From Isosphaera pallida ATCC 43644 (GTDB lineage: Bacteria > Planctomycetota > Planctomycetia > Isosphaerales > Isosphaeraceae): a stretch of 64,000 bases of DNA. How positions within the stretch are numbered: position 1 is the first letter of the stretch; each line of letters begins with the position of its first letter. The notes beneath the pieces are model-generated. The model worked only from the letters and a program-made list of their open reading frames with translations, searched no databases and was not told the origin of the DNA. Below, in pieces: positions 49,884 to 63,401 of the stretch. Location of the stretch: contig NC_014962.1 of the NCBI RefSeq assembly GCF_000186345.1, positions 1,240,001 to 1,304,000 on the forward strand, read 5' to 3'. A program made the position numbers and the translations under genes.

Positions 49884-52800
49884 ATGGTTTTGCGCCAACG
49901 ATCGGTCCGCGTTGGTTTGGCGATCATTTTGGCGATGATCGGCACCAGCTGGATTCTCCAAACCAGCCTGGATGCTCCAAGAGCCGCCACAGTACGAATG
50001 GTTCCCGCCAGCATCACCTTGGCCCCGGCGACGGCCACGCCGTCCCTAAGCCGAGTGGCTTCTCACGCGCTGAGTTTTCAGGACGACGAGGATCCCTTTG
50101 AGGATGAACAAGCCAAGCCCCAAACCATCCTCCGCGATCCCAACGACCGTTCGCCTCGCCTTGGCGGTTACAAACGTTGGCCACGCGGCCCGGAACAAGC
50201 CGTGGCTCGCGGGCTGACACTGCTCACCGAACTCAACTGCGTCGCCTGCCACCGCGACCCCGATGGGCTGATCGCGGCCAACGGTCCCTTCAAGCCGAGG
50301 GTCGGCCCCGATCTGAGCCTGGCGGGGGATCGTTTGCAAGCCTGGTGGTTGGTGGATTACCTCAAGGATCCCCGCGGGACGGTTCACGGCACCACCATGC
50401 CCGACCTGCTGCGCGACCGTCCCGAGGCGGAACGCGCTGAGATCGCCGAAGCCCTGGCCCACTTCCTCGCCACCAACGGCGGCGTTTTGGTGCAACCGGT
50501 TAGCCGCGACGCCGTCATTCGTGGCTCGAAACTTTATCATACGATCGGCTGCGTCGCCTGTCACGGTCCACGGGATGGTTCCCCCGTGGACGACGCGGCC
50601 CTCCATCCTCTCGGAACGCTCAGTACCAAATACCATGTCTCAGGACTGGCCGCGTTCCTGGCCAACCCCCGCGTCGCGCGTCCTTCGGGACGAATGCCCC
50701 ACTTCGGTCTCGACCTCAACCAGGCTGGGGATCTGGCCAACTTCCTGCTCAGCAACCAACGCCTGTCCTACAACGTCACCTTCATCCGATCCAACGGCGA
50801 CTTCAACGTCATCCCCGACTTCGATGAGGTCATCCCGGTGGAAACCGGGAACAGCGTCGGATTCGAAGTGGCCCGCGGCCAAGATCAATTCGCCATGCGG
50901 TTTGAGGGATTCCTGACGCTTGAACAAGCCGGAACCTACGTCTTCTTCCTCTTCGCCGACGATTTGGGACGCTTAACCATCGACGACCAAGTCATTATCG
51001 AATCGACTTATCCCAACGAATCGAAGGTCAAGGTTCCTTTGGAGGCGGGGGTCCACCGGGTCGTAGTCGAATATGTCGAGTTCTTCGGTGAGGAGAATCT
51101 TCGTGTGGAGATTCTCGGTCCGGGGTTACCTCGTCAGCGTTTGGACGACCTGCTAACAATCACACCCCAAGCTGCTCCGCCTGTCTCCAGCCCGCCGCGG
51201 GCCGACGCCGAGGCGCTCGAGCGTCCCGTCTTCAAGCCGAACGCCGAACTGGCCCAACGCGGCCGACGGCTCTTCGGCGAATTGGGTTGCGCGTCGTGTC
51301 ATGCCCACAACGGTTTAGGTGAGAATGAATCGGACACCCTCGCGCGGATGACCGCGCCCAAACTCGATGCCCTCCGGATCGATCGGGGGTGCTTGAGCGC
51401 GACGGGGGAAGCCGGCGCGATTCCCGCTCAATACGACCTCAGCGAGGGGCAACGTCTTGATCTGATCGCGGCGTTGAGCGATCTCCAAGCGGTGTCGAAC
51501 CTGGCCAAGAACGCAGGAGCGCGGATTCATCAAACCTTGGTGAGTTTCAACTGCGTCGCCTGCCACCAAAGGGACGATCTGGGTGGTCCGCTGGCTTCGA
51601 CTTGGGAGTGGTTCAAGACGACGACTCCCGAGATGGGCGACGAGGGCCGTCTGCCCCCCAACCTCACAGGAGTGGGCGACAAGCTCCGACGCGACTGGCT
51701 GCGGAACGTGCTGCACAACGGGGCCAAAGAGCGGCCCTACATGCTGGTCAAAATGCCCGGCTTCGGACCCGATGCGCTTGGAGACCTGGATGGGCTGCTC
51801 GAAGCCCACGACCTCAAACCACCCTTGGACCCGGTCGCGCCGTTGCTCGACCCGTTGCGAATGAAGGCTGCCGGGCGGGTGATCGTGGGCGACAAGGGGG
51901 TGTCCTGCATTGCCTGCCACGTCTTCGGCGATCGCTCCACGGCCGGTATCAAAGCGATCGACCTGACTCGAATGCACGCGCGGTTGCGTGAAGACTGGGT
52001 GACACGTTACTTGTACGATCCCCAAGCGTATCGTCCCGGCACCCGAATGCCCGCCTCCTGGCCCGATGGAAGAAGTCTCCTACCCGATCTGCTTGAAGGA
52101 TCAACTGCCCAACAGATCCTCGCCCTCCAACTTTACCTGGCCGACGGCCCCCAGGCCGCTCCGCCCTCGGGACTGGGCGGCAATCCGATCGAACTGGTGC
52201 CTAAGGATGCCCCAATCCTCTATCGCAACTTCCTTCAAGGAGTCGGCCTACGCGGCATCGCCGTGGGCTTCCCGGAACAGGCTCACTTCTTCTATGACCT
52301 GGAAGCGGCTCGCCTAGCGGTGATCTATCGTGGCGCATTTCTCGATGCGTCTTTACACTGGGAGGGGCGGGGGCAAGGAAACCAGCGTCCCCTGGGCGAC
52401 GTCACGGTGAATCTGCCCTTCGGGACGCCTCTGGCACGGCTCGCTAAGCCCGAGGACCCCTGGCCGACCCATTCCCCCCGCGATCAAGGTTATCGCTTCC
52501 TGGGCTATCGGCTCGACGACCGAGGACAACCGATTTTCCGTTATCGTTGGAACAACCTGATTGTCGAGGACTTCATCCGGCCATTCATCCCCACGGATGA
52601 GTCGGAACCGATCTTCTTGCGCACCTTGACTCTCTCCGCCTCCTCGGAGGTTCGAGAGTCGCAACCACCGGGTTCCATCTGGTTGCGGCTAGCTCAGGGC
52701 CCGGAGATTCGAGCGACCGACCACCCCGGCGAGTTCCAGGTTGGTCCCATCCTGCGGATTCGCTCGCGGATCGCGTCCTCCTCCGCTCCTGAGCAGGCTC

Positions 52801-52901
52801 CCCGACGGGTCGAAACCACTCAGGGACCGGCCTTGCTCGCGCCCGTAAGGCAACCCGACCCCGACCAGCCCACCATCGTCGAGTGGGAATATCGCTGGTG
52901 A
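49884..52901 (+). CDS. Secreted multiheme cytochrome c with a PA14-like domain (five CXXCH)
   Basis: 1005 residues. ATG 49884 has GGGGAG eight bases upstream. The N-terminal signal or anchor is [17 protein letters not shown]. Heme motifs are at about residues 119 (CVACH), 222 (CVACH), 470 (CASCH), 556 (CVACH) and 675 (CIACH). The region about 305-420 ([60 protein letters not shown]) is a PA14-like beta-barrel of the kind that binds sugars. The end, about 760-1005, is a beta-rich region without recognised family. Similar cytochrome/PA14 mixtures are typical of planctomycetes. It probably passes electrons from an exported sugar- or alcohol-oxidising enzyme. The next gene, 37 bases downstream, encodes a glucose/sorbosone dehydrogenase-like propeller, which fits this. 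Confidence 0.9.
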
Positions 52902-54521: not shown

Positions 54522-55559
54522 TCAGTTGTCAGAGTCGTCAGCAGCGGCGCTGTTGTTGGGGTTGGCCGGTTCATAGGAGGTGGTGGAGGGGGAGTCGCCG
54601 GTTCCGACGCCGTTGAGGAAGGCCAACACAGCGAAAAGGAAGATCAAAAAGATCAGAACGACCCTTGGCGATTGAGTGGGGTGAGCGAAGCATCGGGCTT
54701 CGCTTGGGTCGGGGTCGTTGAGGCTGGAGGCGGGGCGGTGGCTGGCGGGAATTGGGACAGGCGGACGAGCCAGCGCCACCAGGTGGGGGCTATGCGGGTT
54801 GAGGTGAAAGGCGCGGGTGGCCAGCGTCAGCTTGCGACGCCGTCTCAAAGGCAGGAGGCATAGACAGAGGCGAACGAGGGCGTCGATCTCGGCGGGTGAA
54901 CCCGGTCGATCAATCACCACCTGTTGACCTCGCAACAGCGCCGCGGCGATCCGGGCGGCCTGGGGATCAAGGTCAGCGGGTAGATCCGGGAACGGAACCG
55001 GTGTCACCATGCCAACCTGTTTGGGCCAGGGCGAGCGGAGGTCATCAGGACCGAAGTCGCGTCGCAAGAGAGGCTCAAGAGTGAACGGGTCGTAGAAGAG
55101 CTTGCGGGCTTGATTGGGGCTGAGAAACAGGGCGTGAAAGCCCATCGCCCCTGGTCGTCCCCGATCGTCGGCACCGGGGCTGAAGGGGGCGACGACCATC
55201 CAGGTCCCATCGGCGAGCCACTGGGTGACCAGACCAAACTCGGTTTCCTCAATCCCTCGCGCAGGTTCTCCAAAGCGTTGGGCCGTCTCCTTGAGAGCAG
55301 TTTGCCAGGTCGGTCGGCAGCCTGGGGAGTATCCAAGCATCGCGTAGCCACCACCACGGAAGGGAAAGCTGCCGTAGGCGGCCTGCTCCAGTTCGAGCCG
55401 AATGGCGGGCTTGGGTTTGCCCAGCACGGCCGACCATTCAGGTGGGCGGTGCCAGGGCCGGGGACCGCTAAGAGGTGAGAGCCCCGACGTCGTCGGTTCT
55501 GGTTCGGAATCCTGAGACGGGGTGATCAAGTCAGTGGGAGGGGAGTTGGGAATGGTCAT
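54522..55559 (-). CDS. Unknown protein of the GTPase cluster, with a possible GAP1-N-like domain and C-terminal membrane helix
   Basis: A 345-residue protein. A polar Pro/Ser-rich N-terminus of about 50 residues is followed by LEQAAYGSFPFRGGGYAMLGYSPGC (about 57-81). This pattern (x-Q-x-x-YGS-x-x-x-x-GGY-x-x-L-x-x-SPG) recalls, from memory, the GAP1 (GTPase-associated protein 1) N-terminal domains of conflict systems. WMVVAPFSPGADDRGRPGAMGFHALFLS and EPLLRRDFGPDDLRSPWP continue the domain. A helical basic segment (LCLLPLRRRRKLTLATRAFHLNP) and a C-terminal hydrophobic helix (RVVLIFLIFLFAVLAFLNGVG) follow, so it is membrane-tethered with its main body in the cytoplasm. The gene lies 139 bases after the GTPase gene on the same strand, which supports a link to GTP-driven regulation. 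Function unknown; no catalytic motif seen. Confidence 0.72.
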   Translation of the reverse strand: MTIPNSPPTDLITPSQDSEPEPTTSGLSPLSGPRPWHRPPEWSAVLGKPKPAIRLELEQAAYGSFPFRGGGYAMLGYSPGCRPTWQTALKETAQRFGEPARGIEETEFGLVTQWLADGTWMVVAPFSPGADDRGRPGAMGFHALFLSPNQARKLFYDPFTLEPLLRRDFGPDDLRSPWPKQVGMVTPVPFPDLPADLDPQAARIAAALLRGQQVVIDRPGSPAEIDALVRLCLCLLPLRRRRKLTLATRAFHLNPHSPHLVALARPPVPIPASHRPASSLNDPDPSEARCFAHPTQSPRVVLIFLIFLFAVLAFLNGVGTGDSPSTTSYEPANPNNSAAADDSDN

Positions 55560-55698
55560 AAGCGATGCCCAGTCCGGTAGAGGAAGTCGAGCCGGACGAA
55601 GTCGGCTTGACGTGTCCTTGAGTTGCGAGCAAGGTGGGGTGGAAGCCTGAGGAGTCGATCACCTCAAGGCCATGCCTTGGCCCAGGGGGAGCAGTGGC

Positions 55699-58008
55699 TC
55701 ATTCCGGCTTGGGCAGGGAAGGAAGGTTGAAGTCGGACTCGAACACCAGGAGGGTCTTGCCGCCCCCGGCCGGCCGGATGGTGGTCGAGAGCAGCTTCAT
55801 TGCCAGCGGGTCGTCCTTGGCGGAGTAAAGGGTGTAGATATCCCTTGAACCAAGGAATCCATGTTTGGTGATCGTGATAGCGACTGGGTCGCCCCGCTTC
55901 CAGACCACGGGTTTGGGGAAGGTGTAATCCCAAACCGGACTGGAGGTTCCAGGGATCGTGGGGCTAGGCCCGTAGGTGACCCCGCCGACTTCAATGGTCA
56001 CCGACAAGTCGGGATTGCTGCCCACGCTGTCCTCAACCTGGCCCCGCTTGAGAGTCACCTGGTATTCATGGGGTTCGGAAATCTTCCGAATCCAATCCAG
56101 ATAGGCCTGCGCGGCGGCGGTGAACCGCCCGTTGGGATGGACTCGCAGATAATCATTGAGCCGTCGGGCACCTTCATCCAGATCGTTCGGAAACTCACGG
56201 ATATGTTGATACGCTTGGCGATATGAGTGAAGATCCCATTCTTTGAAGATTTCGCTCTTGGCTTGAAGTGCTTCGGTCAGGTGCCGTCCGCCACTGGCAT
56301 AGGTTTTGAGGTAGGCGTCGTATTTCTCGATGCGGGCGGCGAACTGGGTGGGGAAGCGACGGGAGAACTCGACGGCTGAGGTGAAGTCGCGGTCGTCCAT
56401 CCGGGCGGTGAATTTGGCGATGAGTTCCTCGGCTTCGACGCGGTAAATTGATTGGGGATGCTCTTCGAGGAAGGTTCGCGTTCGATCCAGCAGGTCGCCG
56501 AGATCGGCGTTAGGCAGTTCCGCGGCGCGTCGGATTGAGTCGAGGCGTTGCTTGTCGCGGGTGGACTGGCGTTCGGTGCGGAACTGGATGAGGGCGTTCG
56601 CCAATCTAATGGCTTCCTCGCGGTGGGGTGAGTCAGGGAATTCCCGCAGGAAGCTGCGGAGGTCATCGATTTGCCGGCTGGGGTCGTCGTCTGGCAGTTC
56701 GGCTTCGGCGCGGAGCAGACGCCACCGGTCGTCGTGGCGGCGTTTGGCTTGCACTTCTTCAATCTGACCAATCTCGGCAATGCGCTCGGGGGCCAGTTCC
56801 TTGAGTTCGATCAGCCGATTCTCGCGATCCGGGTCGGAGCGTCCCGCCAGGACGCGGGCTTTCTCCGCTTGAATTTGGGCGTCGCGGCCGCGTTCCAACG
56901 CCTCGTTGTAGCGTGCGGGGAAGAGCCAGCGGAAGGTGGGGTGCCACTGACGGAACTCTTCCCAGCGGCGGGCGACGGCCTGGGCGGGGTTCTTCTCGGC
57001 CTCGAAGCGGCGGGCCATTTCGTAACCCGCGAGGTCGTAGGCCACTAGCGCCGCGGCGGTGGCCACCAGGAGGAGCAACGCGGTGCCCAAACGTCGGGCC
57101 AGCCGGGCGCGTCCCAGTTTGTTGAGGCGTTTGCGGTAGGCGGCGGCTTGGGGCGATTCGGGATAACGCCGCTCGAACGACTTGACGCAACGGGACAGCC
57201 GGACGTAGTCGTGGGGCGCGAGATCCCAGAGCCAATCGAGTTGGTCGCGGTCGATGGTTTCGAGTTTGGAGGCGACCCAGAGCAGGGGGGCATCCAATCC
57301 TTGGGGTTCAAGTTCGGCCGGTGGCGACCCGTCCTCGCCGCCGGAGGGACCATACGCGCTGACGGCGAAGGTGGCCGCGTCGGGGGCATTGTGCTTAATG
57401 GCGTGCAGGGTCATGCCGAACCGCTTTTCCAGCAGGGTTTCAACAGGGATGGGGCCCTGGGTGGCCACCACGCGGTCGTACTTGGTGACGACGATGGCGA
57501 TGGGACGTTGGACTTTGAGGGTGCGTGACTGCTCCAGGTAGGTTTCCAGCAGACCTTCGACCTCTTGTTGGCGTCGGAGCCGCTCGGCAGGTTCGGTGGA
57601 GCCGGTGGGGTCTAGGCAGAAGAGAACTGCGTCGCAGTCGGCAAAGAAGTCCAGAATCGGCTCGTTGCTGCCAAGGGTCACGTGTTCACCCTGGTAGTCT
57701 TTGACGATGAGGTCATAGCGAGCTGAGCCGTGATAGAGCCGAAGCTTGAGTTCGGTTTCCGAGAGGGTACCCGCAGGGGGTTCGCCAGCCTCGATGCGGG
57801 CGATCTTCTCCGCGAGGTATTCGGCGGTTTCTGGTTCGGGGGCCGAGAGTCGCAAGTCGGGCACCTGGCCGGTTGACGCCTGGCGGTAGAACATCGCCAG
57901 CAAGGTGGTTTTGCCGACGTTGCGATGGCCGAACAGCCCGACTTTGCGGGGCGCAGTCAGATGACGTTCCAAATGGTCCAGAATTTCCCGGGCAGTGGGG
58001 TCGGCCAT
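55699..58008 (-). CDS. Membrane-anchored GTPase with helical repeats and a C2-like C-terminus
   Basis: 769 residues. ATG 58008 has GGAG about 10 bases upstream. Residues about 20-225 are a P-loop GTPase: G1 GHRNVGKTT (27-35), G3 DYQGEH (Asp104-Gly107), G4 TKYD (175-178, a variant of NKxD that keeps the guanine Asp) and a G5-like VSAYG (216-220). About 305-325 is one membrane helix (LGTALLLLVATAAALVA). About 330-640 are charged helices resembling TPR/coiled-coil repeats (FLREFPDSPHREEAIRLANA, FLEEHPQSIYRVEAEELIAKF). The last about 115 residues are beta-rich and look like a C2-type domain (LKRGQVEDSVGSNPDLSVTIEVGG, SSPVWDYTFPKPVVWKRGD). The GTPase should be cytoplasmic and the C-terminus extracytoplasmic. 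It resembles the GTPases found with GAP1 proteins; pathway unknown. Confidence 0.82.
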   Translation of the reverse strand: MADPTAREILDHLERHLTAPRKVGLFGHRNVGKTTLLAMFYRQASTGQVPDLRLSAPEPETAEYLAEKIARIEAGEPPAGTLSETELKLRLYHGSARYDLIVKDYQGEHVTLGSNEPILDFFADCDAVLFCLDPTGSTEPAERLRRQQEVEGLLETYLEQSRTLKVQRPIAIVVTKYDRVVATQGPIPVETLLEKRFGMTLHAIKHNAPDAATFAVSAYGPSGGEDGSPPAELEPQGLDAPLLWVASKLETIDRDQLDWLWDLAPHDYVRLSRCVKSFERRYPESPQAAAYRKRLNKLGRARLARRLGTALLLLVATAAALVAYDLAGYEMARRFEAEKNPAQAVARRWEEFRQWHPTFRWLFPARYNEALERGRDAQIQAEKARVLAGRSDPDRENRLIELKELAPERIAEIGQIEEVQAKRRHDDRWRLLRAEAELPDDDPSRQIDDLRSFLREFPDSPHREEAIRLANALIQFRTERQSTRDKQRLDSIRRAAELPNADLGDLLDRTRTFLEEHPQSIYRVEAEELIAKFTARMDDRDFTSAVEFSRRFPTQFAARIEKYDAYLKTYASGGRHLTEALQAKSEIFKEWDLHSYRQAYQHIREFPNDLDEGARRLNDYLRVHPNGRFTAAAQAYLDWIRKISEPHEYQVTLKRGQVEDSVGSNPDLSVTIEVGGVTYGPSPTIPGTSSPVWDYTFPKPVVWKRGDPVAITITKHGFLGSRDIYTLYSAKDDPLAMKLLSTTIRPAGGGKTLLVFESDFNLPSLPKPE

Positions 58009-58270
58009 GCCGAAAACGCTCCGTCTCGGAATCGAAGGCCAGGCGAAACCCACGCGACTTCAACTCGGAAAGCCGCCCGGTTCGCCTTGGGTGCGACGCG
58101 GACGAGGGGAAAGAGAAAGTGGGAACAAGCGGGGAATTAGGTCGTGGTTGGTTCAAGGAGGGGAACGGAAATCGAAACGTTTCCCAACCAACCCGAGTTC
58201 AACTCCATCCAACCGCCCCAATCGGGATAGGAGCGCGTTGAATTCTAGTATGACCGGGATACCGGAAGGC

Positions 58271-59287
58271 TCAAGCCCGACCTGACGCGCCGATGGAAGG
58301 GTTGGCGGAACGGCCGCGACGTCGCAGCCATTGAATTGGCCAGAGGATTGGGGTCAGGGCGGTTCGTAACGGCAAACCGACCAAGACGAGGAGGGCCATC
58401 ACCGCCACGGTGAGGGCAGCGAAGAGACCGAGGATTCGGGTGAGCCAGCCGGTCAGGCCGAGACGTTGCTCGATCACCCCTTCCAAGCCCGTCATTGCTC
58501 CCGAGGCGACTGCGCCGGCGACCGCCACGCCAGCTTCGGCCAGCACCCGCGCTCCGTATTCGGTAACGTGGCCCACTGAATCGACGAATTGTTCAGGATT
58601 GGCCAGATAAAGGCTCAAAACGCCCGCCGCCGCCAGTTTCTTGCGGTGGGCCAAGATCGTGTTGGTGTAGAATTCCCAACCGGGTCGCCCAGTCTTGCGT
58701 AAAACGTCGATGGCTTCGGGCCCTTCGCGAACAATCACCTCAGCCACGTCGGGGCCATACGCCCGGACTGCCGCCAAGCCCTGGGGTCCCAGGGAATCGA
58801 TGAGCGCCGCGGGATTTCCCGGCGTGGCTCGAACCAGGTCGCCGGCGGTCTCACCCAGTTCGACCAGCATCTTTTTTTCGGCCGGTGCGAGTCGCGCGAA
58901 CGCTTCGGCGAGCTGGGCGTCCCCTTTGCTGAGCGCCTTGAAACGTTGGTCCAGTCCCAGTTCGCTTGGCGAGTTCATGGCTCGTCCACCGCGGGCTGCG
59001 GCTTGGGTGGTCAAGTCGTTGTAGTTGCGGAGCATGGTCTCGAATGACTGATTCGTCGCGCGCAACGCCATCGAACCGGTCGCTTCGGAAGTCTCGCGTC
59101 CCGTGACGCGGGCTTTGGTGACGATGAGTTCCATCAGCTTGTCGTACAAGCGGGTCTTCACGTCGGCCTGGGCCGAGGTGGGCGCGAGTGTCAGAAGACC
59201 CCAGATCAACGCAATCCCGAGCGAAGTCCGCGACGCGGGACCGCGATGAATCCAGGTCAAACAAGGGAAAGCCAACCGAACGCGCAT
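58271..59287 (-). CDS. Exported or membrane helical protein of the GTPase cluster
   Basis: A 338-residue protein; GGAG lies nine bases before the ATG. The N-terminal signal is long (ASRTSLGIALIWGLLTLAPTSAQA). The mature part is almost entirely helical, with no known domain: NYNDLTTQAAARGG, LDQRFKALSKGDAQLAEAFARLAPAEKKMLVELGETAGDLVRATP and a repeat-like PQGLAAVRAYGPDVAEVIVREGPEAIDVLRKTG. Two long hydrophobic segments near the end (GAVASGAMTGLEG, LTRILGLFAALTVAVMALLVLVGLPL) suggest membrane insertion. The AVRAYGPDVAEVIVREGPEA motif recurs in looser form in the 669-residue neighbour (RYGEEGEKALRQVGSWAVPIV), so the two are probably paralogues. Function unknown. No catalytic motif seen. Confidence 0.75.
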   Translation of the reverse strand: MRVRLAFPCLTWIHRGPASRTSLGIALIWGLLTLAPTSAQADVKTRLYDKLMELIVTKARVTGRETSEATGSMALRATNQSFETMLRNYNDLTTQAAARGGRAMNSPSELGLDQRFKALSKGDAQLAEAFARLAPAEKKMLVELGETAGDLVRATPGNPAALIDSLGPQGLAAVRAYGPDVAEVIVREGPEAIDVLRKTGRPGWEFYTNTILAHRKKLAAAGVLSLYLANPEQFVDSVGHVTEYGARVLAEAGVAVAGAVASGAMTGLEGVIEQRLGLTGWLTRILGLFAALTVAVMALLVLVGLPLRTALTPILWPIQWLRRRGRSANPSIGASGRA

Positions 59288-59460
59288 CAGTGGGGACTCC
59301 GTCTCCGAAGCGGGATTCGGGGGAAGGGTTGAGACAAGCTAGACAAGAAGAACAAAGCAAAACCGCGAAGGGGGTTGTCAAGGATATTCAACGCGGCGGC
59401 AACGACAGACTCCCACGAACTAGGTCCAGCCGGAGCCCGAGGTTCAGGTTGGGGACGCGA

Positions 59461-61461
59461 TTATTCATTCGATGCCGTGCGTGAGGGATGCGGAGCGCGA
59501 CGGGATTGGAGATATTCTTCCATCTTCGAGATTGCTACAATTCCCACCCCGGCCGCGATCAAGTTGTCACTCATATACTTGGTGCCCCGGATGGCGATGG
59601 GGCGAACCGTCTCAACCCCGGAGTGAAGCAACCGCACTGGGGCGAACCGGGCGAGGTTGATCCGGAGCTTGGCGGCCAGGGGCCGGGCGAGATCGGCCAT
59701 TTCACCGGGGGTGAGTTTGGGAAGGACTTCGGGCAGGCGTTTCAGAGTGGCGAACAGGCCGCCGGCTTGCTCGACTGCCAACCGGCGTCCAGTCCAACCG
59801 AGGACGTCACGCGCGGGATGGCCGGTCATTCGTGTCGTTGCGCCCTCGCCGACTTCGCGCAGGGTCGCCCTGGCGGAGGAACGCAGGTTGGTCCGCGCCG
59901 CTTCAATCGCCGCGACTCCTTCGGGTTGGAGGCTACCTAGGCTCACCACGTCCATGATGATGAAGGCCACGTCGAAGAGGGCGAAGGTGAGTTCGCCCAT
60001 GGATGGGGTCCAGCCCCGCGACAGGACGTTGGCAAGGTTGACTACCTCATAGAGAGGCAGGAGTTCCTGAGGTTGCAAGCCTTCAGCCGCATGAAGCCAG
60101 GCGACTCGTTCCATCCCCTCGTCCTTGATCGTTTGAATGACGCCTTGACCACTCTCGCGACCGATCGCCATCAAGCCCTGGATGAAGACTTGCGACAGGG
60201 ACGGGTCGGGATTCTCCTTGAGCTTCTGGAGCGTTTCGGGAATCTGATCGACTCGGGCGATGGGGGGAATCACCGCTGGACCGTAGGTTTTGAGGATCAA
60301 GCGGAAGTCGGCGTCGTCCGCGTACTTGCTGAGGATGCGGTACCCTTCCTGTCCATGAACCGCCATTGCGCGGACCGCCTGGTTGGCTAGGGTTGGATCG
60401 CTCTCAAAAGCGGACACAATGGGGACGGCCCACGAACCGACTTGTCTCAACGCCTTCTCGCCCTCCTCCCCGTACCGGGAGACGAATCGGAGACCTTGGG
60501 GTGCTCCGCCTACCTCCTTGACCAAGTTGACAGCCGCCACATGCCGAATCAGCCGCGCCAGGTCGTCGGGACGACGAATCCGAAGTAATTGATCGAGGTC
60601 GTCCGAGTTGGCCTCGATGAGGGTCAAGACGTCGTTGAGCGGCGGGTGGTCGCCGATTTCTTGAATCAGATCCCCGTACAGGCAGACCAGGATAAATCCA
60701 CTGATGCCTCGGACCCGGTATGCCTCCATCGCCAGCGGTCCATGAAGCCGCAAGCCCCGGACCGCGATGCGCAAGTCGGCTCCCCTCGATTCGAGGTCGG
60801 CGAAGCTGAGGATGGCCAACACGTCGCCTAGACGCTCGGGGGTGTCCCGCCAGTCGTTGATCAGATCGAGAACCCCTTGGGGGTCGGTGAGCAGGAGGGG
60901 CAAGGCGTTGGGATATTCGGCGGCCGCTTTGCGGGCCGCGCGGGGAAGTGAGGCCACGGCGTTGACGAGTGCGCGGCGATCCTGATGGTCGGTCAACTTG
61001 GTTCCAAAGTAGTCCCGCCATTGCAGCAGGATGGTGGCGGCCGCGTCGTCATCCCGCAATGCGTCGCGGAGGGTGCGAAACTCGGTGGGATGGGACTCGT
61101 ACAGAGTGACCGCGTTGAGATCCAGCGCTTCGAGCAGCTTAAGGCCCCGGAGTCCGTCGGTCGCCTCGATGCGAACCGCGGTATAGGCGTACTTGTCGAG
61201 CATCCTCAAAGCGAGTTCGGCGTCGTTGGCTGTGGCCCATGAGCGGGCTGCCCACGCGACGCGGATGGCGTCCAGTTCCGTCAAGGCGTGCTGGGCAACC
61301 ATCGGTGTTTGGTCGGAAATCCCCGACTGGGAGGCGTTTTGAGGGCTGGACCGATTCGCCGTGGTGATGTTCAGACGCGCGGAGAGGGCAAGGTGAGACG
61401 CCAGTTTCAGCGTCGCTCCCAATGCGGCCAGAAGGATGACCAAGGCGAACAAGCGTTTCAT
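59461..61461 (-). CDS. Large exported helical-repeat protein of the GTPase cluster
   Basis: A 666-residue protein with an N-terminal hydrophobic segment (MKRLFALVILLAALGATLKL) that is either a signal or an anchor; ATG 61461 has AAGG eight bases upstream. The mature part is built of short alpha helices without known domain: LSFADLESRGADLRIAVRGLRLHGPLAMEAYRVRG, GLRFVSRYGEEGEKALRQVGSWAVPIVSAFESDP and VRAMAVHGQEGYRILSKYADDADFRLILKTYGPAVIPPIARV. The pattern recalls HEAT-type or 'AL-G-A' repeats. Near 500-560 there is a hydrophobic piece (LTFALFDVAFIIMDVVSLGSL). It is the first gene of the minus-strand cluster with the GTPase and the GAP1-like protein, and shares a repeat motif with the next gene. 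Function unknown. Confidence 0.75.
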   Translation of the reverse strand: MKRLFALVILLAALGATLKLASHLALSARLNITTANRSSPQNASQSGISDQTPMVAQHALTELDAIRVAWAARSWATANDAELALRMLDKYAYTAVRIEATDGLRGLKLLEALDLNAVTLYESHPTEFRTLRDALRDDDAAATILLQWRDYFGTKLTDHQDRRALVNAVASLPRAARKAAAEYPNALPLLLTDPQGVLDLINDWRDTPERLGDVLAILSFADLESRGADLRIAVRGLRLHGPLAMEAYRVRGISGFILVCLYGDLIQEIGDHPPLNDVLTLIEANSDDLDQLLRIRRPDDLARLIRHVAAVNLVKEVGGAPQGLRFVSRYGEEGEKALRQVGSWAVPIVSAFESDPTLANQAVRAMAVHGQEGYRILSKYADDADFRLILKTYGPAVIPPIARVDQIPETLQKLKENPDPSLSQVFIQGLMAIGRESGQGVIQTIKDEGMERVAWLHAAEGLQPQELLPLYEVVNLANVLSRGWTPSMGELTFALFDVAFIIMDVVSLGSLQPEGVAAIEAARTNLRSSARATLREVGEGATTRMTGHPARDVLGWTGRRLAVEQAGGLFATLKRLPEVLPKLTPGEMADLARPLAAKLRINLARFAPVRLLHSGVETVRPIAIRGTKYMSDNLIAAGVGIVAISKMEEYLQSRRAPHPSRTASNE

Positions 61462-61785: not shown

Positions 61786-62904
61786 TCAACCAAGTCTGCC
61801 CACAACGCGGTCGAGCGAAGCGGTTGGGGTGGGGAGAGAAACCAAACGAAGGAATTCGCCACCGGAGGGGGCGTGGTCACTGGGAAGGGGACGAGAACCG
61901 GAGCGACCAGGTTTGTCGTGAGGAATCAAGGTAACGTGGTTCCAGGTCGAGGCGTCGGCGGTGACGCTCGCCGCCTCGTCCTGAGTTAGACAGCGCTCGG
62001 TTGCCGACCCGGGAAGGTGGGTGGGAATGTCCTCCGAGCTTGGGTTCTCCAGACGCCTGGCCTGCTCGAGCGCTGCCAAGCGGGATTCGGGAGCGGGTGG
62101 GGTGTGCCGCCAAGGGGGAGGAGCCCAGCGAGAACGACCCCAAAGCACATGTAGAACCGTCATGGCCAGAATTTTGAGATCTAGACCTAAGCTCCAATGG
62201 TCGAGATATTCCAGGTCGTATTCGAGTCGTTTCGAGATGGAGGTCCGACCCCGGTAGCCGTGGACCTGGGCCCAGCCGGTCATTCCGCCTGGGCCTTCGT
62301 GGCGGCGGTGGTAAAGCGGGAGGTCGCGGGCGAACTGCTCCACGAAGACCGGGCGCTCCGGGCGTGGCCCCACCAGACTCATTTCGCCTTTGAGAACATT
62401 CCAAAGTTGAGGCAATTCGTCGATGTTCGTTTTACGCAGCCATGCGCCAACGCGGGTGCAGCGATCATCGTTGGCGGCGGCCCAGATGGGGCCGGTACGG
62501 GTTTCGGCGTCCCGCCTCATGCTACGGAACTTCCACATTTGGAAAATTCGCCCGCCCCGACCGACTCGTTCCTGAACATAGAAGATGGGTCGGCCGTCGG
62601 TCAGCCAGATCGCCAACGCCACCACTCCAAACAACGGGGTCAACAGAATCAGACCCACGGTTGCGCCCACCAGATCTAAAGCCCGTTTGAGCGGATGACT
62701 CAACCCGGTCGAAGTCGAGCATGGCAGCGCGTTCGAGGGTTCGCAAGCATGAGACCGTGCAGGGAAGGTGGCGAGGTGAGAGTGTGGGTATGTGAGCCTT
62801 CTCCAGCCTCTCAAGCGAACCAGGCGACGCTGGGCAGCGTTCCTGAACGAGACGCGGGAGGGTATGGTTACACTCCCCGAGGCCGATTCCGGGAATCCCT
62901 TCAT
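61786..62904 (-). CDS. Undecaprenyl-phosphate sugar-1-phosphate transferase (WcaJ/PglC-like)
   Basis: 372 residues from ATG 62904; the true start is uncertain because the first about 70 residues are low-complexity and several in-frame Met codons lie upstream. The catalytic module is clear: KRALDLVGATVGLILLTPLFGVVALAIWLTDG (reentrant membrane helix), PIFYVQERVGRGGRIFQMWKFRSM, RVGAWLRKTNIDELPQLWNVLKGEMSLVGPRPERPVFVEQFA (Asp-Glu pair and phosphate-binding GPRP) and GMTGWAQVHGYRG. These enzymes move a sugar phosphate from UDP-sugar to the lipid carrier and start exopolysaccharide or O-antigen synthesis. The large N-terminal membrane domain of WcaJ is absent, so it is the short monotopic form. The about 110-residue C-terminal tail is unlike the family. 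Confidence 0.9.
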   Translation of the reverse strand: MKGFPESASGSVTIPSRVSFRNAAQRRLVRLRGWRRLTYPHSHLATFPARSHACEPSNALPCSTSTGLSHPLKRALDLVGATVGLILLTPLFGVVALAIWLTDGRPIFYVQERVGRGGRIFQMWKFRSMRRDAETRTGPIWAAANDDRCTRVGAWLRKTNIDELPQLWNVLKGEMSLVGPRPERPVFVEQFARDLPLYHRRHEGPGGMTGWAQVHGYRGRTSISKRLEYDLEYLDHWSLGLDLKILAMTVLHVLWGRSRWAPPPWRHTPPAPESRLAALEQARRLENPSSEDIPTHLPGSATERCLTQDEAASVTADASTWNHVTLIPHDKPGRSGSRPLPSDHAPSGGEFLRLVSLPTPTASLDRVVGRLG

Positions 62905-63401
62905 GGACACTTGCCCCATGCCTGACGCTTCCGGCGCACTGGATTCGCAGGTCATCGTGACGTCGGAACCAAGCCGCTTGGAAGCGGGTGCCACCCGCGG
63001 CGAACCGGGGGCGGATTCTAACCCGCTCCCCCAATCGGTCAACCGCCATTGGTCGGGAACTGTCAGGAGGTGAAGTCGGCCACCCCATGTGTGTGATCGG
63101 TTCGGAACGGGTTCGCGGTTTGGCCCTCAAAACCATTTTCCGACCTTGCTGGGCCGAGTCCGTGGGTCACAACCTGAAATCCCCAAGACGCGGAGGTTAA
63201 ACAAACAGACCCGGTTTCTTGGGTTCCCATCGCTGTGAGTCTTTCCTTCTTTCGTCGTCCTTCCGGTTCGCCTTGAGGGATCGTTGGCTTGGCGGTAAGG
63301 TCCACCGCGGGGATTTCCCCCAACGAGTTCCGCACTCGGGATCGTCAAAGTCGGCGTTCTCGATGAAATCGTTGCCACGCCACGCGCGGGAGAGTTGAGG
63401 C
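62905..63401. other. Divergent intergenic region between the sugar transferase and the GT2 gene
   Basis: Up to 500 bases, depending on the real start of the sugar transferase. Frames on both strands continue into it, but none looks coding. No clear promoter or hairpin noticed. Confidence 0.4.

What the first reader, a model, noticed from the sequence alone, without database searches (positions are those of the whole stretch)
54522..61461. Undescribed four-gene cluster around a membrane-anchored GTPase
Four minus-strand genes in a row have no neighbours of other function. They encode an exported helical-repeat protein (666 residues), a second exported protein sharing the same repeat motif (338), a GTPase with a membrane helix, extracytoplasmic repeats and a C2-like end (769), and a membrane-tethered protein whose Gln-Tyr-Gly-Ser...Gly-Gly-Tyr...Ser-Pro-Gly pattern recalls the GAP1 N-domains of GTPase-based conflict systems. 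Seen directly: order, signals, G1/G3/G4 motifs. Known: GAP1 proteins occur with GTPases in NTP-dependent conflict or regulatory systems. Inferred: these four act together across the inner membrane, with GTP hydrolysis inside and helical partners outside. Defence, envelope stress sensing and secretion are all possible.
Basis: partly seen in the sequence, partly recalled or inferred. Interest (0 to 1): 0.8.

Follow-up and report, generated by a model that had tools for sequence, protein, structure and literature searches.

The report
Membrane-spanning GTPase complex in planctomycete bacteria
Four neighbouring genes of one planctomycete family encode a GTP switch inside the cell that is wired through the inner membrane to a long arm with a C2-type domain outside it, plus partner proteins; the set looks like a core part of these bacteria rather than a mobile defence system, and its job is untested.

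Summary
The four genes are real, in the stated order and sizes. The GTPase (55699-58008) is a DO-GTPase with an Arf/Rag-like predicted fold inside, one membrane helix, then outside a TPR-like stalk and a C-terminal C2-fold domain. The 54522 gene belongs to a diverged GAP1-N2 family: the window protein itself gives no GAP1-N2 hit, but 12 of 18 aligned members do, and two orthologues pass Pfam's cut-off. The two exported helical proteins match no known family. In the window's family (read as Isosphaeraceae) the GTPase is in 45 of 45 genomes, all four genes in 41 of 45, and each gene in 26 of 26 high-quality genomes, also where they are scattered. Divergence follows genus. The FNIII partner and patchiness of published GAP1-N2 conflict systems were not found. 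Best mechanism, partly inferred: a GTP-switched envelope tether acting through the stalk and C2 domain. Side lead: in two remote planctomycetes a related membrane-anchored GTPase lies beside an ABC-MlaE lipid-transporter fusion. New variant of a known kind.

The parts
59461..61461 (-). repD: 666 aa, N-terminal membrane anchor, exported alpha-helical repeat protein, no known family; a second hydrophobic segment about residues 491-509
   Evidence: ORF; match in 43 of 45 family genomes; model helical, mostly confident for residues about 60-410, residues 459-666 below pLDDT 50; no Pfam family at E <= 1, in 13 aligned members only scattered hits, best 0.025; hydrophobic segments
58271..59287 (-). 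repC: 338 aa, signal segment, C-terminal hydrophobic segment with basic tail; no known family
   Evidence: ORF; match in 43 of 45 family genomes; directly upstream of gtpB in 34 of 36 genomes where both are on one contig; Pfam none for the window protein, scattered hits in 20 members, best 0.0036
55699..58008 (-). gtpB: 769-aa membrane-spanning DO-GTPase
   Evidence: Pfam DO-GTPase2 7.8e-11; 27 of 27 aligned members; 45 of 45 family genomes
57223..58008 (-). gtpB cytoplasmic GTPase domain, residues 1-262
   Evidence: model (residues 101-120 of lower confidence); VIA-align top row 9edr_G Z 16.4, rmsd 4.3, 189 residues; most of the 50 rows shown are Arf/Arl/Rag GTPases at Z 14-16; motifs
57907..57930 (-). 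G1/P-loop GHRNVGKT
   Evidence: 27 of 27
57688..57699 (-). G3 DYQG, followed by an invariant Glu
   Evidence: 27 of 27
57475..57486 (-). G4 TKYD
   Evidence: 25 of 27
57025..57081 (-). gtpB transmembrane helix, predicted N-in/C-out
   Evidence: hydrophobicity and flanking charge
56077..56985 (-). gtpB extracytoplasmic TPR-like helical stalk, residues 342-644
   Evidence: model; Pfam YfiO 1.5e-6 over residues 430-595, 13 of 27 members
55729..56076 (-). gtpB C-terminal C2-fold domain, residues 645-760
   Evidence: model, block pLDDT 81-94; Foldseek rows to C2 domains of Itch, cPLA2, E-Syt and dysferlin, TMt 0.62-0.68, E 3e-4 to 1e-3, aligned range not shown; Pfam C2 in 8 of 27 members, best 0.009
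54522..55559 (-). gapA: GAP1-N2-family protein, 345 aa (301 aa if the GTG at 55427 is the start), one C-terminal helix
   Evidence: alignment A1; GAP1-N2 in 12 of 18 members, best 3.9e-6, not in the window protein, which has GAP1-M at 0.072; match in 42 of 45 family genomes
54606..54662 (-). gapA transmembrane helix

Best explanation
A core, vertically inherited inner-membrane complex of Isosphaeraceae built on the DO-GTPase/GAP1-N2 pair but put to envelope housekeeping. In the cytoplasm the GTPase acts as an Arf/Rag-like switch read or set by the GAP1-N2 protein. Its single helix carries the nucleotide state across the membrane to a TPR-like stalk that ends in a C2 domain. RepC (anchored at its C-terminus) and RepD (anchored at its N-terminus) assemble on the stalk in the periplasm. 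GTP binding would extend or cluster the stalks so that the C2 domain docks on a facing membrane (outer membrane, or the apposed face of a membrane fold), making a switchable tether that holds or feeds membrane contacts in an enlarged periplasm. Shown: genes, domains and predicted folds, predicted topology, co-occurrence, family-wide presence. Inferred: physical complex, coupling across the membrane, C2-membrane docking, tether role.
For: DO-GTPase kinship in 27 of 27; GAP1-N2 kinship; predicted GTPase, helix, TPR-like and C2 folds; charge bias N-in/C-out; all four genes in 41 of 45 genomes, each in 26 of 26 high-quality ones, with repC-gtpB adjacent in 34 of 36, repD-repC in 26 of 36 and gtpB-gapA in 27 of 35 same-contig cases; kept also when dispersed, e.g. 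the pairs repD-repC and gtpB-gapA 55 kb apart in G034; identity 0.83 within and 0.59 between genera for gtpB (30 genomes), nearest neighbour congeneric in 17 of 18 (gtpB) and 22 of 22 (repD). C2 loop acids: D667 in 26, D715 in 26 and D717 in 24 of 27; that these match Ca2+-ligand positions of known C2 domains is recalled. A second repD-like/TM-DO-GTPase gene pair in the same genome. Remote relatives beside an ABC-MlaE lipid transporter. The planctomycete periplasm can be greatly enlarged, wall pits are always in close contact with the cell membrane, and the periplasm is said to lack ATP and GTP (PMC5394234, passages).
Against: No experiment, and no complex prediction could be run. The window's own C2 domain has lost both loop-3 acids (K715, G717), so Ca2+-dependent docking would not hold here. 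The C2 match rests on one predicted model; the second aligner's rows covered mainly residues 18-253. repD has a second hydrophobic segment in 11 of 13 aligned rows, so where its last third lies is unsettled. 9 of 18 gapA rows are short (220-294 aa) with no terminal helix called. No MlaE row shares a contig with gtpB closer than 157 kb (8 of 45 genomes have both on one contig). The C2 part is not detected by profile in the MlaE-linked relatives. The gtpB-repD identity correlation (0.88, 24 genomes) is hardly above that of gtpB with unlinked MlaE (0.83, 12 genomes), while repD-MlaE is 0.49 (13 genomes), so it shows common descent at most, not interaction. pTM of the GTPase model is 0.44, so the domain arrangement is not fixed.
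Confidence: 0.4

Rival explanations
1. A GAP1-N2 conflict (defence) system as described by Kaur et al. 2020: the GTPase switch releases an effector on invasion.
For: Shared core pair DO-GTPase plus GAP1-N2; the paper says GAP1-N2 systems occur in planctomycetes and often carry TM segments and extracellular domains (PMC7159879, passages). Weak PADLOC hits of the GTPase to PDC-S01 models, 0.0015 and 0.0073; EAD1 in 1 of 27 GTPases at 0.028; a PIN-domain gene between repC and gtpB in L003 (1.2e-11).
Against: Family-wide and tracking genus rather than patchy; no FNIII hit in the four protein families (for the GTPase, 25 of 31 families were shown) nor in 10 flanking ORFs scanned; no phage match of the GTPase.
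Confidence: 0.12
2. An envelope-stress sensor: periplasmic RepC/RepD and the TPR-C2 arm sense damage and flip the cytoplasmic GTPase, with GAP1 passing the signal on.
For: Same topology and partners; a DO-GTPase occurs in some gammaproteobacterial Psp operons and is called membrane-stress related (PMC11237479, passage).
Against: None of the four proteins matches a regulator family in the tables shown; flanking genes were not annotated systematically, so a linked regulator is not excluded.
Confidence: 0.25
3. A lipid-transport regulator: the GTPase gates an Mla-type phospholipid transporter encoded elsewhere in Isosphaeraceae.
For: In two genera of family f30 (L111, L112) a TM-anchored DO-GTPase, closer in its GTPase domain to gtpB (8e-34, 2e-31) than the window genome's own paralogue is (1e-15), is packed beside an ABC-MlaE fusion. 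All 45 Isosphaeraceae genomes have MlaE genes.
Against: Found in only 2 of the 4 genomes held of that family; no MCE (MlaD) domain detected in the neighbours; MlaE is not near gtpB in the 8 Isosphaeraceae genomes that could be judged.
Confidence: 0.15

Closest known systems
DO-GTPase/GAP1-N2 systems (Kaur, Burroughs, Iyer, Aravind 2020, eLife e52696; Pfam PF19993, PF20013)
   Same: DO-GTPase and a downstream GAP1-N2 gene; membrane association; domains beyond the GTPase's TM segment, as the paper reports for some
   Different: Single GTPase with one central helix, TPR-like stalk and C2 domain; no FNIII partner or zinc ribbon found; two new exported helical proteins; family-wide and vertical
Arf/Arl/Rag GTPases
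   Same: Predicted GTPase fold
   Different: Carries its own TM helix and extracytoplasmic domains; by profile it is a DO-GTPase
C2 domains of membrane tethers and lipases (E-Syt, cPLA2, dysferlin)
   Same: Predicted fold, TMt 0.62-0.68; acidic loop residues in most orthologues
   Different: Predicted to lie in the periplasm on a bacterial GTPase; loop-3 acids lost in the window protein
Mla/MlaE phospholipid transporters
   Same: Neighbour of remote relatives in L111 and L112
   Different: Not linked to the four-gene cluster; no MCE domain found

Membership tests
DO-GTPase/GAP1 core pair | DO-GTPase domain | tested here: met
   P0002 7.8e-11, 42.5 bits vs cut-off 27; 27 of 27 aligned members match
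DO-GTPase/GAP1 core pair | GAP1-N2 protein encoded downstream | tested here: met
   By orthologues: GAP1-N2 in 12 of 18; over the cut-off of 24 bits in L031 (27.4) and L146 (34.7), under it in 5 and absent in 2 of the other 7 checked; the window protein itself has no GAP1-N2 hit. Downstream adjacency 27 of 35
DO-GTPase/GAP1 core pair | conserved Glu in Walker B | tested here: inconclusive
   E108 right after DYQG is invariant, but I could not verify that this is the residue meant in the paper
DO-GTPase/GAP1 core pair | GAP1-M and GAP1-C domains | tested here: inconclusive
   GAP1-M in 3 of 18, best 0.0014; no GAP1-C hit; half of the rows are short
GAP1-N2 conflict system | FNIII-repeat component | tested here: not met
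   no FNIII hit in the four protein families (25 of 31 families shown for the GTPase) or in 10 flanking ORFs of seven loci; one encoded elsewhere in the genome was not sought
GAP1-N2 conflict system | two N-terminal zinc ribbons on the GTPase (usual, not universal) | tested here: not met
   the GTPase domain starts about residue 20 with no room for them
GAP1-N2 conflict system | highly variable effector components between close relatives | tested here: inconclusive
   the four-gene set is constant in 41 of 45 genomes, but flanking and inserted ORFs were scanned only in part: 10 ORFs, one PIN domain, one ankyrin protein, one pyruvate kinase, seven without a hit
GAP1-N2 conflict system | protects against invaders | not testable with these tools
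   needs experiment
C2 domain | C2 beta-sandwich fold | tested here: met
   predicted model with Foldseek C2 rows, E 3e-4 to 1e-3
C2 domain | Ca2+-ligand acids in loops 1 and 3 (positions recalled) | tested here: inconclusive
   kept in 24-26 of 27, but loop-3 acids lost in the window protein; not mapped on a solved structure
Mla lipid transport system | MlaE/ABC genes in the locus | tested here: not met
   none of the four genes is one; MlaE elsewhere in 45 of 45 genomes, nearest 157 kb in the window's genome; beside remote relatives only

The most novel reading that the evidence does not exclude
A bacterial GTP-driven membrane-contact machine: an Arf/Rag-like GTPase in the cytoplasm operates, through its own membrane helix, a periplasmic TPR stalk tipped with a C2 domain, with helical-repeat partners, to make switchable contacts between membranes and control lipid exchange; related GTPases in other planctomycetes are wired directly to an MlaE lipid transporter. 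This would let planctomycetes use GTP energy for work in the periplasm, which is said to hold no GTP of its own.
Probability: 0.18. Interest if true: 0.88.

Novelty: new variant of a known kind. Interest (0 to 1): 0.62.

Why it matters
GAP1-N2/DO-GTPase pairs have been read as conflict systems. Here the same pair is a fixed component of a whole family, tied to the envelope by new partners, so the pair's general role may be membrane work rather than immunity. It also offers a concrete, testable machine for the old question of how planctomycetes shape and connect their enlarged, folded membranes.

Tried and rejected
Defence reading: tested by distribution and mobility and set aside. Shared repeat motif of the two exported proteins: not significant. 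Fold of repD: no clear PDB match (none with E <= 0.001; best Z 6.2, 114 residues, a designed protein; TAL-effector rows at Z 3.8-5.5 with rmsd of 20 or more), taken as common helical-repeat geometry; a fold missed by Foldseek is not excluded. repC and gapA were not folded (two jobs only). Sequence searches of solved structures gave nothing useful (FhuC 0.045; LexA 0.027 for repD, taken as chance). MCE domain in the 764/606-aa neighbours of L111/L112: my impression by eye, not supported by Pfam. GAP1 kinship of the TM proteins in those loci and of the third gene of the own-genome paralogue locus: not supported. A conserved ~350-aa ORF upstream of gtpB in the Gemmataceae-like loci: its frames do not look like protein and have no Pfam hit, dropped. 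Promoter and terminator patterns: no clear excess over shuffles. A first repD profile had taken in the paralogue L002 and gave circular E-values for it; I rebuilt the profiles from A1-A4 only and use those. Phylum-wide searches scored only 2-5 candidates per genome, so absence there is weak for remote relatives.

Literature: full-text searches. No paper held MlaE, planctomycet and GTPase together, nor Isosphaeraceae and GTPase; subscription papers are mostly not in that library. PMC7159879, PMC11237479 and PMC5394234 were seen in passages only, PMC3422733 as abstract and outline; all other papers in listings only.
Full report
Genes. The window lies at G000:C2:1240001-1304000 of a 5.53-Mb, 99.97% complete genome. 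Orthologue alignments support the starts of gtpB (ATG, 58008) and repD (ATG, 61461); for gapA they favour the GTG at 55427 over the ATG at 55559. Intergenic gaps are 139-262 bp and simple promoter or terminator patterns show no clear excess, so one operon is likely but not shown.

Domains. gtpB matches DO-GTPase2 (7.8e-11) and DO-GTPase1 (2.1e-9), as do 27 of 27 aligned members. G1 and G3 fit in 27 of 27, G4 in 25 of 27. The AlphaFold2 model (mean pLDDT 86.4, pTM 0.44, 27 sequences) shows a GTPase domain, a long helix 286-337 holding the membrane segment, helical hairpins 342-644, and a beta-sandwich from 645. VIA-align places the first with small GTPases, mostly Arf/Arl/Rag (top row 9edr_G Z 16.4, rmsd 4.3, 189 residues). 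Foldseek also lists C2 domains, which can only fit the sandwich, though the table gives no range. Charge flanks put the GTPase inside and the rest outside. Three acidic positions in the C2 part are kept in 26, 26 and 24 of 27; the window protein alone lacks both loop-3 ones.

GAP1. The window's gapA gives only GAP1-M at 0.072. Of 18 aligned members 12 give GAP1-N2. Among nine orthologues scored one by one, GAP1-N2 is above the curated cut-off in L031 and L146, below it in five, absent in two. L031 and L146 lie next to gtpB orthologues, so the family is GAP1-N2 by transitive homology. Lengths run from 220 to 469 aa in A1; a helix near residues 230-320 is called in the long forms and the window form, not in the nine short ones.

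Partners. repD and repC have no Pfam hit at E <= 1 in the window, and only scattered weak hits among 13 and 20 members. repD models as an alpha-helical repeat over about residues 60-410, with residues 459-666 of very low confidence, and no clear solved relative. A second hydrophobic segment is called in 11 of 13 repD rows, so its topology is not settled.

Distribution. Among 45 family genomes gtpB is found in 45, repD in 43, repC in 43, gapA in 42; each is in 26 of 26 with at least 90% completeness and at most 5% contamination. All four are in 41 of 45; missing are repD in G010 (98% complete), three genes in G012, repC and gapA in G024, gapA in G035, the last three being incomplete assemblies. 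Counting pairs on one contig, repC-gtpB is adjacent (same strand, right order, under 2 kb) in 34 of 36, repD-repC in 26 of 36, gtpB-gapA in 27 of 35; all three junctions hold in 14 of 45. In some genera the set is dispersed but retained: repD lies 12-15 kb from repC in four of six g17 genomes, and two pairs lie 55 kb apart in G034. In 392 genomes sampled from the phylum repD was found only in the two of this family, repC also weakly in four others, and gtpB, in part, in five others; those searches scored few candidates per genome. gtpB also occurs in 10 of 95 genomes of the family of L031, a record titled Gemmataceae, next to gapA in 4 of the 10 loci examined, one of the rest (L143) ending at the contig end. 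No repC was found in L031's genome, an empty answer without a control. So gtpB-gapA looks like the wider pair and repC-repD the Isosphaeraceae addition.

Descent. Identity tracks genus: nearest neighbour congeneric in 17 of 18 (gtpB) and 22 of 22 (repD), against 12 of 14 for MlaE. Identity correlations are 0.88 (gtpB-repD, 24 genomes), 0.83 (gtpB-MlaE, 12) and 0.49 (repD-MlaE, 13), so the first does not by itself show interaction.

Neighbours. Ten ORFs flanking or lying inside the set in seven loci were scanned: a PIN domain between repC and gtpB in L003, an ankyrin protein and a pyruvate kinase beside other sets, and no hit in seven. No FNIII.

Second copies. The same genome holds a paralogous pair (L063): a 720-aa repD-like protein (A3 profile 5.9e-5, 2.4e-6) directly upstream of a 673-aa TM DO-GTPase (2e-17), followed by a 423-aa TM protein. 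An independent repD-like/DO-GTPase pairing supports a functional link.

Lipid lead. Two genera of a remote family (f30; L111, L112; 2 of 4 genomes held) carry TM-anchored GTPases whose GTPase domain matches gtpB at 8e-34 and 2e-31. In both, the gene is packed between an ABC-MlaE fusion and a TM protein, with a second TM protein before the fusion, in conserved order; L112 has two such GTPases in tandem. Stalk similarity is weak and their C2-like ends are not detected by profile. In Isosphaeraceae MlaE is present in 45 of 45 genomes; in the 8 genomes where a listed MlaE shares the contig of gtpB the nearest is 157 kb away.

Judgement. Membership: the core pair qualifies as DO-GTPase/GAP1; the published conflict-system layout is not met on the FNIII partner and zinc ribbons, and is undecided on effectors. 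I commit to an envelope role, most likely a GTP-switched tether; the steps from co-occurrence to complex, and from C2 fold to membrane docking, are inference.

Noticed in passing
L063:8612-13987 (own genome, G000:C2 3796611-3801986): Paralogous trio: repD-like 720 aa, TM DO-GTPase 673 aa, 423-aa TM protein.
   Followed up: partly
L111:149-8257 and L112:3143-13015: Conserved gene set: TM protein, ABC-MlaE fusion, one or two TM DO-GTPases, second TM protein; a GTPase beside an Mla-type lipid transporter.
   Followed up: partly
window 55858-55866 (gtpB residues 715 and 717): The window species alone among 27 lacks both loop-3 acidic residues of the C2 domain.
   Followed up: partly
L113:8770-9969; L118:9041-10819: Proteins matching the gtpB stalk without a GTPase; L113 also matches the C2 part (1.9e-6), L118 has repeated stalk matches.
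   Followed up: no
L115:8735-9805, L116:9392-9901, L117:8983-9801, L102: Remote repC-like proteins in other planctomycete lineages; L116 matches both repC and repD profiles.
   Followed up: partly
L003:6875-7930: PIN-domain gene lying between repC and gtpB in one genome.
   Followed up: no
L143, L144, L145: In the Gemmataceae-like family gtpB lies near ornithine carbamoyltransferase, class-III aminotransferase and RNase PH genes (L143) and directly before seryl-tRNA synthetase (L144, L145).
   Followed up: partly
NZ_AP027060.1:54500-55423: Haliovirga abyssi plasmid encodes a remote match to the GTPase (25.5% identity, 38% of query).
   Followed up: no
window 49884-52901 and 61786-63042: Flanking genes look like a multi-haem c-type cytochrome (CxxCH motifs) and a sugar transferase, by eye only.
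   Followed up: no
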